Position numbers and translations under genes: made by a program
Assembly (NCBI RefSeq): GCF_004340205.1
Contig: NZ_SLWB01000005.1
Location: 62,001 to 126,000 of the forward strand
From: Acetobacteroides hydrogenigenes
GTDB taxonomy: Bacteria; Bacteroidota; Bacteroidia; Bacteroidales; ZOR0009
DNA: 64,000 bases
Reading direction: 5' to 3'
Notes under the pieces: model-generated
Told to the model about the DNA's origin: nothing
The model's input: the letters and a program-made list of their open reading frames with translations, nothing else
The model's database searches: none
Shown here: positions 61,147 through 64,000 of the stretch, piece by piece
Layout: the number at the start of each line of letters is the position of its first letter
Numbering within the stretch: the stretch's first letter is position 1

Positions 61147-61851
61147 GGCGTAGTGTTAGAGATAATAGTGGGGCAAAGAAGGGAAAAAATGGGCGAGCTA
61201 CGGATAGTAACGATGTTAAAGATGCTAAATGAATTATTATCGAGGACGCGCTTAGGGCGTTAAAGGAAGTGGCGCGAAGCGACATCCCGCCTTAGCGGGA
61301 TCAAAGAATGTAAATGGCGTAGATTCCGAGCTCATTATCCTCCCGCCTAAGCGGGAGGTAGGGGTGGGGTATACATCTGCATATAAGTATAGTGCTTTGT
61401 TTGGCGAAGGCTCCAGCCTTCGTCAATTCTATCATTGCAGGCTATAGCTTGCAGACATAGATTCGACTGAGGAACAGCCTCCGCCGAACAAAGAAGATCA
61501 ACATTAACGGAGCGGGGTAGAGACGTACGGCCGTGCATCTGGTAAGAATAGAAACAAACCCCAATCAAGGTTCGTTAACCCTGTTTATTACCCTTTATTT
61601 CGAGACGCATACAATGCGTCTCTACGCGCAACGATTATTCGAAGCTCTAGAGACGCGATGTTCGCGTCTCTTTTTTCAAGCAATCATTTAATTGCGGTTT
61701 AAGACCGCTACTTATATTCGAAATAGCCACAGACTATGCCGAGCCTCGTACTTCGATTATACTACGCTCAGCAGAGGGGTTCTAGACCGAGCGATGTCTA
61801 CGACTTCATCCTTTCTAATTGACGGCCTACCACCCGCAATATAGCTCTCGG
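61147..61851. repeat. Repeat-rich intergenic region
   Basis: No gene. It holds the palindrome ATCCCGCcttaGCGGGAT (61284-61301) within a repeat also seen near 36,590; a half REPIN copy CCTCCCGCctaaGCGGGAGG with GGGGTGGGG (61335-61370); GAGACGCATacaATGCGTCTC (61602-61622); and AGAGACGCGatgttCGCGTCTCT followed by TTTTT (61649-61676), which looks like a + strand terminator although no + gene precedes it. Confidence 0.7.
61738..61778. repeat. Direct repeat, left copy (flanks IS110 region)
   Basis: GCCGAGCCTCG...TTCGATTATACTACGCTCAGCAGAGGG recurs in the same orientation at 63901-63949 with an 8-base insertion. The two copies bracket the orphan gene and the IS110 element. Confidence 0.65.
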
Positions 61852-62247
61852 CTATATATTACTACTATTCTCCTTTAATTCTGCCATTCGTTTTTTATCT
61901 ACATAATGTGTGGCATACTGCTCTTCAATAGCTTTACTGCCCGATTGGCTAAACCTTAATCGACGACTTAATCGTTTACCCATTTGATTATATGCTGTCC
62001 AAGAGCTTTCCAAATCTAGCTCAACAGCGTATCTTCTAATAAGCTTATTTACCAGCGAAAGCTTCACCAAATCAACACTACATACTTCCTCTAAACAATC
62101 GACCTTACCCAACTGCCAGCTTTCATAATCGCTTTCCGACAAAAAGTTAAGCTGCAAGAGTACGTCTACAGCGCAAACATAACCCTTTAAGTAACGATTC
62201 GAGTGAACCAATCTTTTTATCTCTTTCTCTAATTCTTTATTACTCAT
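61852..62247 (-). CDS. Hypothetical helical protein beside IS110
   Basis: 131 aa, no signal or membrane segment, predicted helical. Notable parts are S-N-R-Y-L-K-G-Y-V-C-A-V-D-V-L-L-Q-L and, near the C-terminus, F-S-Q-S-G-S-K-A-I-E-E-Q-Y-A-T-H-Y-V, which has the look of a conserved family motif I cannot name. It lies between repeats and the IS110 element, so it may be mobile cargo. Function unknown. Confidence 0.6.
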   Translation of the reverse strand: MSNKELEKEIKRLVHSNRYLKGYVCAVDVLLQLNFLSESDYESWQLGKVDCLEEVCSVDLVKLSLVNKLIRRYAVELDLESSWTAYNQMGKRLSRRLRFSQSGSKAIEEQYATHYVDKKRMAELKENSSNI

Positions 62248-62306
62248 CGAAACTTCCTATTTAAAACAAATTTGTTAAACCCCACGTTAGGCAAAGTCCC
62301 GCTGCT

Positions 62307-62329
62307 AAGCGTAGGCTCTGCCTACGCTT
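62307..62329. repeat. 10-bp perfect hairpin
   Basis: AAGCGTAGGC/GCCTACGCTT with a TCT loop, upstream of the orphan gene and on the right-end side of the IS110 transposase. It could be a terminator reading + or part of a dispersed repeat. Confidence 0.6.
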
Positions 62330-62478
62330 TTGTTCTTTGCGGCCTTCGTCCGTTTTTGTATCAGGCCTGAGGCCTTGGTTACAGGAGCGTAGCGAGGACG
62401 CTACGAATTCTATGGTTAATCCAAATGTTTAGCGTTAAAACATCCCTTCTTGATTTAGCAAACAAAGGTACATTTCGA

Positions 62479-62570
62479 CAGCAGGACATCAAGGCCAAGC
62501 CCTTCGGGTTTTATAAAAAATCTCCACCCTACGGGTTGTATTTTTCATAAAAGCCTTGACTTTCCTGCTG
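62479..62570. repeat. Structured inverted repeat 3' of the IS110 transposase
   Basis: CAGCAGGACATCAAGGC (62479-62495) pairs with GCCTTGACTTTCCTGCTG (62553-62570) almost perfectly. Two small internal hairpins share a plan, CCCTTCGGG (62500-62508) and CCCTACGGG (62527-62535), each followed by T/A-rich sequence. Probably within the right end of the IS. Confidence 0.65.
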
Positions 62571-62620
62571 CCTCCACGAAAAGGGTGTTTACCAAATCAA
62601 GGAAGAGATCAAGCATCCCG

Positions 62621-63643
62621 CTATGCTGCTTCCGCAAGCGGATGCTTGAAATTTATGTCGTACTGCTGATGCTTTTTTACTACAGCAAACATCATATGTA
62701 TAAGCTTATTTCGAACGTTGTTAATTATCAAAAGGCTATGCTTCCCCTCCTTCTTCTTTCGTTCGAAATAGGCCTTTAGCACAGGATTATAGGTTACGGC
62801 TGTTCTGGCAGCTTGCGTGAGCAAAACTTTCATCGGCTTGTTTGCAAGGTGGCTCACCCTGGTCTTCCCCCTTACACTCGTGCCTGATCTATGTTCAAAG
62901 GGGACTACGCCACAGTAGCAGCCAAACTTCCTCGCGCTGTCAAATAGCGTAAAGTTGCCTGTAAGCACCATAACCATCAGCGCGTTAATTGTACCAATAC
63001 CCTTAATGGAGGTTAGCAGCTGATAGTTTTCCATCAAGCCGACATCTTGCAGAAGCAGCTCGTTCATTCGCCCCTCAGCAGCTTTAACCTGCTTCTCCAT
63101 TTCAGCAGCGAGCCGCTGGCTATCCTCACCGATGAACCGTACTGAGGCGCTTGACTGCTTAACCCGGGTAAGCTCCCTTGCCGCCTTCGAGAGGCTTCCT
63201 TTTACTTTTATTAACCGATCCCTGTAGGATAGCAAATCCTTGATCTCCTCAAGAATTCCCGAAGATGGCCTGTAGAGCTTTGCCCTATCTTCGAATCGCA
63301 TGGCGTACCTAGCAATGGCGGTAGCATCTACAGGGTCTGTTTTCTCTCGGCTCATGCCCTTCGATAGCTTTATTTGAAGAGCCGATTCTAGCCAAAAATC
63401 AATTCCTTTATCATGAGTACATTGGGCAAGCCCATAGGAGTAAAGGCCTGTATGCTCGCCGCAGATAAGCCAGCTATCAGGTGTACACCGTGTCTTTTCC
63501 AGTATCCACGCAATAAGCGCCTCAAATCCCTGCGCGCTATTTTCAAACTTACCAACCCCTAAAAGGGTATCGCTGCCTCTTGCTACCAACGACGCATCCA
63601 GGGTTAACTTGGAGAAATCAATTCCAATGAAGAACTTTTTCAT
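62621..63643 (-). CDS. IS110 family transposase (RNA-guided recombinase type)
   Basis: 340 aa, intact. The N-terminal RuvC-like DEDD domain has Asp9 (F-I-G-I-D-F-S-K), Glu63 (C-G-E-H-T-G), Asp103 and Asp106 (K-T-D-P-V-D-A-T). A coiled coil spans about 140-200. The C-terminal Transposase_20 domain has I-K-G-I-G-T-I-N-A and the likely nucleophile Ser253 in H-R-S-G-T-S, before N-K-P-M-K-V-L-L. IS110 recombinases are guided by a bridge RNA from a non-coding end of the element; such an end is visible upstream (63644-63851). Confidence 0.95.
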   Translation of the reverse strand: MKKFFIGIDFSKLTLDASLVARGSDTLLGVGKFENSAQGFEALIAWILEKTRCTPDSWLICGEHTGLYSYGLAQCTHDKGIDFWLESALQIKLSKGMSREKTDPVDATAIARYAMRFEDRAKLYRPSSGILEEIKDLLSYRDRLIKVKGSLSKAARELTRVKQSSASVRFIGEDSQRLAAEMEKQVKAAEGRMNELLLQDVGLMENYQLLTSIKGIGTINALMVMVLTGNFTLFDSARKFGCYCGVVPFEHRSGTSVRGKTRVSHLANKPMKVLLTQAARTAVTYNPVLKAYFERKKKEGKHSLLIINNVRNKLIHMMFAVVKKHQQYDINFKHPLAEAA

Positions 63644-63851
63644 ACTTTTGATTTTAAGTATTTACTGGAGTTAACCAATAGCTGCTTGCACCAATACTCT
63701 TAGTAGGTTTCGTCTAGAATTCTATCTGGTGTCTATCAGCTTGACTGGCTTAGGTCTGATTCGTAGCCTAAATTATATTTAGCTCAGCGGTAAGTTTACC
63801 CATGCCAGTCGGTTAACTCCTTCCTTTATACAACAAAGGAAGGGGGTAACC
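63644..63851 (-). ncRNA. Candidate bridge RNA in the IS110 left non-coding end
   Basis: GGAGTTAACC (63667-63676) and GGTTAACTCC (63811-63820) are perfect complements 134 bp apart and could close an RNA of about 154 nt. Inside, GACTGGC (63743-63749) pairs with GCCAGTC (63804-63810), TTAGG with CCTAA around 63,750-63,770, and GGTA with TACC (63789-63800). A second fold is possible: 63811-63827 can pair instead with 63835-63851 as a local 17-base hairpin. Position just upstream of the recombinase start fits IS110-type bridge RNAs; exact ends and guide loops are not determined. Confidence 0.55.
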
Positions 63852-63900
63852 TTGCTTTCTTTTTCTTTATTTGATCTCCAAAACTAAGAGCTCAGCGAGG

Positions 63901-63949
63901 GCCGAGCCTTGTTGTTCGATTATACTACTACACTACGCTCAGCAGAGGG
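63901..63949. repeat. Direct repeat, right copy (flanks IS110 region)
   Basis: Same orientation and sequence as 61738-61778 apart from an 8-base insertion (ACTACACT region) and a few changes. Beyond it the window ends in AT-rich DNA with no gene. Confidence 0.65.
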
Positions 63950-64000
63950 CTAGTTATTTCATTGTCTTTGAATAAACATTTATATAATCCTCTTGAGAGT

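What the first reader, a model, noticed from the sequence alone, without database searches (positions are those of the whole stretch)
63644..63851. Candidate IS110 bridge RNA with two competing folds
A 10-bp perfect closing stem around about 134 nt, with nested stems, lies at the start of an intact IS110 recombinase gene. One strand of that closing stem can also pair with a neighbouring 17-base arm, giving a possible switch. Bridge RNAs carry loops that match both the donor and target sites, so this element could be programmable in the same sense as IS621.
Basis: partly seen in the sequence, partly recalled or inferred. Interest (0 to 1): 0.6.

Follow-up and report, generated by a model that had tools for sequence, protein, structure and literature searches.

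The report
IS110 bridge RNA with competing folds
This is very likely the guide RNA of a small jumping gene (an IS110 insertion sequence) that matches both the element's own ends and its landing site, and in this branch of the family its first hairpin can compete with a long-range stem that closes the whole RNA.

Summary
Joining the flanks rebuilds a dispersed REP-like repeat, fixing the element at 62406-63890 (1485 bp). The RNA has a target loop matching both flanks and a donor loop matching both element ends, in IS621 order. Across relatives, left and right target guides fit their own flanks far better than swapped ones (0 of 100,000 and 0 of 50,000 permutations). The target-loop stem and hairpin show two-sided compensatory changes at 14 of 14 predicted pairs. 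The 10-bp stem is a long-range helix, P1, seen in many but not all relatives (0 of 200,000 permutations). Competition between P1 and the 5' hairpin is predicted in three lineages of the element's clade and one outside; that it is a switch is untested. On the circularised element a Bacteroides-type promoter would span the joined ends. So: a new member of a known kind (IS110 bridge RNA) with variant RNA architecture. Nothing was measured; the evidence is comparative sequence analysis.

The parts
62406..63890 (-). complete IS110-type element, 1485 bp, single copy in this genome
   Evidence: flank join rebuilds an uninterrupted dispersed repeat; one recombinase match in the genome
62621..63643 (-). 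IS110 recombinase, 340 aa
   Evidence: Pfam PF01548 and PF02371, NCBIfam NF033542 above cut-off; profile A1 matches IS621 (8wt6, 5.9e-45) and ISCro4 (9t56, 1.7e-44)
63644..63890 (-). left end (LE), 247 nt, holds the bridge RNA
62406..62620 (-). right end (RE), 215 nt
63811..63851 (-). 5' stem-loop with 17-base arms; its base competes with P1
63811..63820 (-). P1 5' strand (GGAGTTAACC), shared by both folds
63667..63676 (-). P1 3' strand (GGTTAACTCC)
63743..63810 (-). target-binding loop domain closed by stem P2 (GACTGGC/GCCAGTC)
   Evidence: RNAalifold on 22 elements: 14 of 14 predicted pairs with two-sided changes; covariance model 89.2 bits, this element being one of its 22 rows
63781..63789 (-). 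left target guide CGCTGAGCT, equals left target plus left core
   Evidence: 14 of 5000 shuffles; family test
63759..63767 (-). right target guide plus handshake bases (GCTACG + AAT), antisense to right target, core and last 3 nt of RE
   Evidence: 6 of 5000 shuffles, 765 of 5000 without the 3 RE bases; family test
63680..63741 (-). donor-binding loop domain
   Evidence: fold; model match
63716..63725 (-). left donor guide ATAGAATTCT, equals the end of RE plus donor core
   Evidence: 0 of 5000 shuffles
63697..63704 (-). right donor guide ACTAAGAG, antisense to core plus LE start
   Evidence: 291 of 5000 shuffles do as well: weak alone
63889..63890 (-). left core CT (donor-type)
62404..62405 (-). 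right core CG (target-type)
62422..62425 (-). TTTG, -33-like half of the circle-junction promoter, in RE
63879..63886 (-). TAGTTTTG, -7-like half (TAnnTTTG) of the circle-junction promoter, in LE
   Evidence: consensus read in PMC7366714
62303..62405 (.). one part of the interrupted REP-like dispersed repeat (target)
63891..63900 (.). other part of the target repeat, containing left target CGCTGAG (63891-63897)

Best explanation
63644-63890 is the left end of an IS110-group insertion sequence and encodes its bridge RNA, in the order 5' stem-loop, target-binding loop, donor-binding loop. The target loop reads CGCTGAG-C-GTAGC in a host REP-like repeat; the donor loop reads ATAGAATT-CT-CTTAGT, the element's joined ends. 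The element excises as a circle (inferred); the ends then form a promoter (TTTG in RE, 20 nt, TAGTTTTG in LE) that transcribes the RNA and the recombinase behind it (inferred); the recombinase uses the RNA to join circle and target (inferred from IS621). The 10-bp stem is a long-range helix P1 that joins the start and end of the RNA core and closes both loops into a three-way junction. In this element the 5' stem-loop can take P1's 5' strand, so the RNA has two folds of nearly equal energy (predicted; seen in part of the clade; function untested).
For: Ends: joined flanks align with no gap at the junction to 10 distinct repeat places among the fetched loci, 7 in this genome and 3 in congener G002 (19 rows, 69-92% identity). 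Guides in this element against 5000 bRNA shuffles: left target 9 nt (14), left donor 10 nt (0), handshake+core+right target 9 nt (6), core+right donor 8 nt (291), core+right target alone 6 nt (765). Family: left guide own 7.28 of 9 against 5.25 swapped, 25 elements, 0 of 100,000; right guide own 5.39 of 6 against 3.96, 18 elements, 0 of 50,000. RNA: 14 of 14 predicted pairs have two-sided changes. A model without P1, built from 22 elements including this one, finds 10 of 14 held-out IS110 loci at E below 0.001 at or just upstream of the recombinase start. P1: blind windows, 20 elements, own -10.15 against -6.56 kcal/mol swapped, 0 of 200,000; hand-set windows, 25 elements, 0 of 100,000. Promoter: 18 of the 20 elements with a recognisable RE end (of 26 with a set LE start) have TTG 19-20 nt before the LE box; that box is exactly TAnnTTTG in 13 of the 18.
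Against: No transcript, circle or recombination was observed. Right-target and right-donor matches are not convincing on their own. The left core (CT) and right core (CG) differ at the second base. The left guide fits poorly (4-6 of 9) in 7 of 25 elements and the right guide (3-4 of 7) in 4 of 18. P1 is not universal: the own partner ranks in the top three in 15 of 20 (blind) and 14 of 25 (hand-set); L007 and L100 fail both. RE is nearly as long as LE here (215 against 247 nt).
Confidence: 0.93

Rival explanations
1. The two folds form a working switch: the full transcript from the circle promoter folds the 5' stem-loop first and keeps P1 open; removal of the 5' arm (processing or a start inside the hairpin) lets P1 close and yields the mature bridge RNA, separating a guide state from a recombinase-mRNA or read-through state.
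For: In RNAs from an assumed start at LE+18, mean P1 is 0.19 here, 0.48 in L014, 0.32 in L098, 0.01 in L071 (G342) and 0.0 in L013; shortened RNAs fold P1 at 0.89 to 1.0 in all five. Hairpin arms fit their own partner better than swapped ones: 1 of 100,000 permutations as good, 20 elements. This element, G342 and L013/L014 lie in one clade, support 90/92. Precedent: 5'-UTR structure limits transposase translation in the IS110 relative ISPpu9 (PMC8450116, abstract and passages).
Against: Without this element and G342 the hairpin signal drops to 132 of 100,000. L010 and L011, in the same clade, fold P1 with or without the 5' part. The start position is assumed. By inspection P1 leaves the A-rich region before the ATG free, so no effect on translation is predicted.
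Confidence: 0.3
2. Both helices are constitutive: the apical 9 bp of the stem-loop and P1 coexist, and the overlap at the hairpin base is branch-migration slack, not regulation.
For: The P1-forced minimum keeps a 9-bp apical hairpin and costs only 1 kcal/mol; an RNA 4 nt shorter already folds this way at 0.998; in L069 the hairpin abuts P1 without overlap.
Against: In L071 (G342) and L013 the hairpin takes P1's 5' strand and dominates the full transcript.
Confidence: 0.55
3. The hairpin is a DNA-level or terminator feature unrelated to the RNA.
For: On the + strand it is followed by a T-rich tract.
Against: The terminator scan does not list it, and by inspection no T-rich tract stands beside the same hairpin in G342 and L013.
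Confidence: 0.08
4. Chance structure upstream of an ordinary transposase gene; guide matches are coincidence.
For: Two of the five guide matches are weak alone.
Against: Permutation tests over the family, the held-out model hits and the retargeted pair L013/L014.
Confidence: 0.01

Closest known systems
IS621 and its bridge RNA (IS110 group, E. coli; PMC11208160 and PMC11208158, passages read)
   Same: DEDD recombinase with Tnp domain; RNA encoded in LE upstream of the gene; 5' stem-loop, target loop, donor loop; 5' side of each loop fits one strand and 3' side the other; donor core CT; insertion into REP-type repeats; promoter formed across the joined ends; handshake bases of the target loop equal the donor end.
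   Different: Adds a long-range helix P1 closing both loops, not mentioned in the passages read; the 5' stem-loop overlaps P1; the target core here is CG; the junction promoter has Bacteroides-type boxes.
ISPpu9 (IS110 family, Pseudomonas putida; PMC8450116, abstract and passages)
   Same: Inserts in REP sequences; a long structured 5'-UTR before the transposase, the place where IS110 elements carry the bridge RNA (that link is my inference for ISPpu9).
   Different: There the structure is reported to bury the ribosome-binding site and to be opened by an antisense RNA; no such RNA was sought here.
seekRNA of ISEc21 and IS1111 elements (PMC11187229, passages)
   Same: An RNA from the long non-coding region carries short matches to both target strands; natural reprogramming reported.
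   Different: IS1111 members usually carry the region downstream of the gene and have subterminal inverted repeats; here it is upstream.

Membership tests
IS110 family, IS110 group | DEDD RuvC-like domain plus Tnp domain with catalytic serine | tested here: met
   D9, E63, D103, D106 and S253 invariant in the 8-row alignment; that these are the catalytic residues is recalled from IS621, not tested
IS110 family, IS110 group | long non-coding end with structured RNA upstream of the gene | tested here: met
IS110 family, IS110 group | RNA guides matching left and right target | tested here: met
IS110 family, IS110 group | RNA guides matching both element ends | tested here: met
   left donor 0 of 5000 shuffles; right donor weak, 291 of 5000
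IS110 family, IS110 group | site-specific insertion with only a short shared core | tested here: met
   one shared C in the rebuilt empty site; the second core base differs between the sides
IS110 family, IS110 group | circular intermediate and junction promoter | tested here: inconclusive
   promoter-like boxes at fixed spacing; circle not testable
IS110 family, IS110 group | RNA binds the recombinase and directs recombination | not testable with these tools
   needs experiment
IS1111 group | guide RNA downstream of the gene (RE) | tested here: not met
   the RNA model finds only the upstream region strongly: 89.2 bits against 17.5 or less elsewhere in the window; the model was built from upstream RNAs
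IS1111 group | long subterminal inverted repeats | not tested
   not searched

The most novel reading that the evidence does not exclude
In this clade of Bacteroidota IS110 elements the bridge RNA is bistable: a 5' stem-loop and a long-range helix P1 compete for one strand, and the change between them, set by where the RNA starts or is cut, decides whether a transcript becomes a guide RNA.
Probability: 0.28. Interest if true: 0.72.

Novelty: new variant of a known kind. Interest (0 to 1): 0.5.

Why it matters
It extends bridge RNAs, with recognisable guides, cores and junction promoter, to IS110 elements of a diverged branch (relatives found here are mostly in Bacteroidota), which adds candidates for programmable recombination. 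The long-range helix P1 and its competing hairpin pose a concrete, testable question about how a bridge RNA is made or regulated, on which the passages read say nothing. In 10 of 14 elements with a good right guide the two handshake bases equal the donor end (5 of 14 equal the target end), some support for the handshake idea outside IS621.

Tried and rejected
Other genomic copies to define the ends: none found (one recombinase in the genome, none in either congener), so the ends came from rebuilding the target repeat. An orthologous empty site in congeners: the 131-aa gene beside the element is at 91% and 84% DNA identity there, but the fetched stretches do not continue into this element's other flank. 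Rfam: nothing at gathering level. Viral contigs: one scan, with the L098 recombinase, found no relative. Sigma-70 promoter scan of 62350-64000: one site, inside the gene, none at the RNA; Bacteroides-type boxes fitted instead. An internal TAnnTTTG-like start inside the hairpin: exact in G342 and L013, one base off here, but by eye no -33 partner at the usual spacing; the enrichment is partly produced by the LE terminus, which itself contains the motif, so I do not rely on it. Host origin of the 41-nt copy of the target loop on contig C12: rejected, because it carries a segment (GAATTAGACC) that by eye resembles the family's loop, so it looks element-derived. A P1 pair count on the model alignment A3 was not done because its ends are not in register. 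The terminator reading of the hairpin: see rivals.

Rows dropped and choices made: 36 loci incl. this element. The left-guide test used 26 (10 lacked a clear LE start, a clear target stem or enough flank), then 25 without duplicate L072; the right-guide test used the 18 that passed; A2 holds 22; the blind P1 and hairpin tests 20 (near-duplicates L067 and L014 left out). LE starts, stem boundaries and the 25 hand-set P1 windows were set by eye after looking at the sequences and folds; the blind P1 test was made to remove that freedom. The RE-end pattern was changed between (tightened, and the search extended 60 nt into the gene); the 18 of 20 include two near-duplicate pairs (L013/L014, L067/L071).

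Full report
WHAT IS THERE. On the minus strand, upstream of a 340-aa IS110 recombinase (62621-63643), the window holds a 41-nt hairpin (63811-63851), two nested stem domains (63743-63810 and 63680-63741) and the second strand of a 10-bp stem (63667-63676, 23 nt before the ATG) whose first strand (63811-63820) is also the base of the hairpin. The folding energy of 63644-63851 is not reached by any of 200 dinucleotide shuffles (z -4.53). The opposite strand is also structured (z -3.59), so strand assignment rests on what follows.

ELEMENT ENDS. The genome has one IS110 recombinase at the thresholds used; two congeners have none. The element sits in a dispersed REP-like repeat. Removing 62406-63890 and joining the flanks gives ...CCCTCGCTGAG|CGTAGCGTCC..., which aligns with no gap at the junction to 10 distinct places among the fetched loci (7 in this genome, 3 in congener G002; 19 rows because loci overlap; 69-92% identity). 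The element is therefore 1485 bp, with LE 247 nt and RE 215 nt, and the whole region of the finding is inside it.

GUIDES. The target loop contains CGCTGAGCT (left target plus core) and GCTACGAAT (antisense to right target, core and the last three bases of RE). The donor loop contains ATAGAATTCT (end of RE plus core) and ACTAAGAG (antisense to core plus LE start). Against 5000 dinucleotide shuffles of the RNA core, matches as long occur 14, 6, 0 and 291 times; right target and core alone, 6 nt, 765 times. The order and strandedness are those reported for IS621 (PMC11208160, passages). The extra bases of the right target guide that fit the donor end occupy the place of the handshake guides of IS621 (PMC11208158, passages). 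In relatives whose right guide fits 5 or 6 of 6 (14 of 18), the next two bases equal the donor end in 10 and the target end in 5. The left junction reads CT and the right CG, as expected if a CT donor met a CG target (inference).

FAMILY TEST. Relatives at about 28-42% amino-acid identity came from genome searches and plasmids. In 25 elements the best 9-nt match of the left flank to the element's own target loop averages 7.28 against 5.25 for swapped loops (0 of 100,000 permutations); in the 18 that score 7 or more the match starts at loop position 16 to 21. In 18 elements the right flank fits its own loop 5.39 of 6 against 3.96 (0 of 50,000). L013 and L014 have almost identical recombinases but different left guides, fitting their own flanks 9 and 8 of 9: natural retargeting. 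Results against: L005, L009, L068, L099, L101, L102 and L109 score 4-6 of 9 on the left; L067, L097, L107 and L113 score 3-4 of 7 on the right.

RNA STRUCTURE. RNAalifold on 22 elements predicts 14 pairs, all in the target domain, and all 14 have two-sided compensatory changes in at least one sequence; it predicts no pair in the donor domain or P1 on that alignment, which is out of register there. A covariance model without P1 (this element is one of its 22 rows) scores this RNA 89.2 bits and 10 of 14 held-out IS110 loci at E below 0.001 at or just upstream of the recombinase start; of these L116 is a partial match and L111 and L112 run over the start codon I had set; L105, L115, L119 and the truncated L012 are missed. 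In six whole genomes, at E below 0.001, it finds only this copy in G000, none in G001 and G002, and in G342 three elements plus one orphan copy without a recombinase.

P1. The 10-bp stem joins the start and end of the RNA core. With windows fixed without reference to it (20 elements) pairing energy averages -10.15 against -6.56 kcal/mol for swapped partners, 0 of 200,000 permutations; with hand-set windows (25 elements) 0 of 100,000. The own partner ranks in the top three in 15 of 20 and 14 of 25; L007 and L100 fail both tests and L068 fails the blind one. I found no mention of such a helix in the passages read of PMC11208160, PMC11208158 and PMC11187229, nor a paper on it in the listings of searches; figures are not held and most subscription papers are missing, so this is not proof of absence.

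COMPETITION. In a 188-nt RNA starting at the hairpin the hairpin and P1 folds differ by 1 kcal/mol; from 4 nt further in, P1 is 0.998. The P1 fold keeps the upper 9 bp of the hairpin. From an assumed start at LE+18, mean P1 is 0.19 here, 0.01 in L071 (G342), 0.0 in L013, 0.48 in L014 and 0.32 in L098, and 0.89-1.0 after 5' shortening; L069, L097, L010 and L011 fold P1 either way. The hairpin arms are conserved as pairs (1 of 100,000), less so without this element and G342 (132 of 100,000). This element, G342 and L013/L014 lie in one clade with L010/L011 (support 90/92, drawn open, below the starred level). A switch is thus possible but unproven; the plainer reading is a hairpin that stacks on P1.

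TRANSCRIPTION. On the circle, RE's TTTG would stand 20 nt before LE's TAGTTTTG. The Bacteroides consensus is TAnnTTTG at -7 and TTTG near -33; the same passage says the -33 motif was not found in Flavobacterium (PMC7366714, passages). Of 26 elements with a set LE start, 20 have a recognisable RE end, and 18 of those have TTG at 19 (2) or 20 (16) nt; L101 and L109 do not. The LE box is exactly TAnnTTTG in 13 of the 18. This parallels the junction promoter of IS621 and places the hairpin inside the transcript. Start sites are inferred.

CLASSIFICATION. The recombinase profile matches the solved IS621 and ISCro4 recombinases. Features of the IS110 group that could be tested are met, the junction promoter by sequence only; biochemical ones could not be tested. 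The novelty is architectural (P1 and the overlapping 5' hairpin), so I call it a new variant of a known kind.

Noticed in passing
window 63752-63792 and L016 2718-2758 (genome contig C12, 103 bases from its end): 41 nt of the target-binding loop, with both guides, recur at 98% identity between two dispersed host repeats, with no recombinase match or other element part seen beside them. It looks like a loop-only relic; cause unknown.
   Followed up: partly
L131 1501-1661 (G342): An orphan bridge RNA copy, 84-85% identical to the three full copies in that genome, without a recombinase gene and apparently beside ribosomal RNA (recognised by eye); by eye P1 is kept while the 5' arm of the hairpin has changed.
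   Followed up: partly
L134 10000-16181 (G000:C7) and L015 6745-6910, just beyond the window: A tyrosine recombinase whose best NCBIfam match is named recombinase/integron integrase (128 bits, below the 220 cut-off), followed by seven small genes on one strand with repeats of about 140 nt between them that by eye resemble integron attC sites; one such repeat lies about 0.7 kb beyond the window end.
   Followed up: partly
window 61687-61781 and 62303-62405: Two families of dispersed intergenic repeats with several copies in this genome and its congeners; the second is the insertion target.
   Followed up: partly
window 61852-62247: A 131-aa gene without Pfam or NCBIfam match, conserved at 91% and 84% DNA identity in two congeners.
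   Followed up: no
L013 and L014: Two nearly identical IS110 elements in different metagenome assemblies with different left target guides, matching their own sites: natural retargeting.
   Followed up: yes
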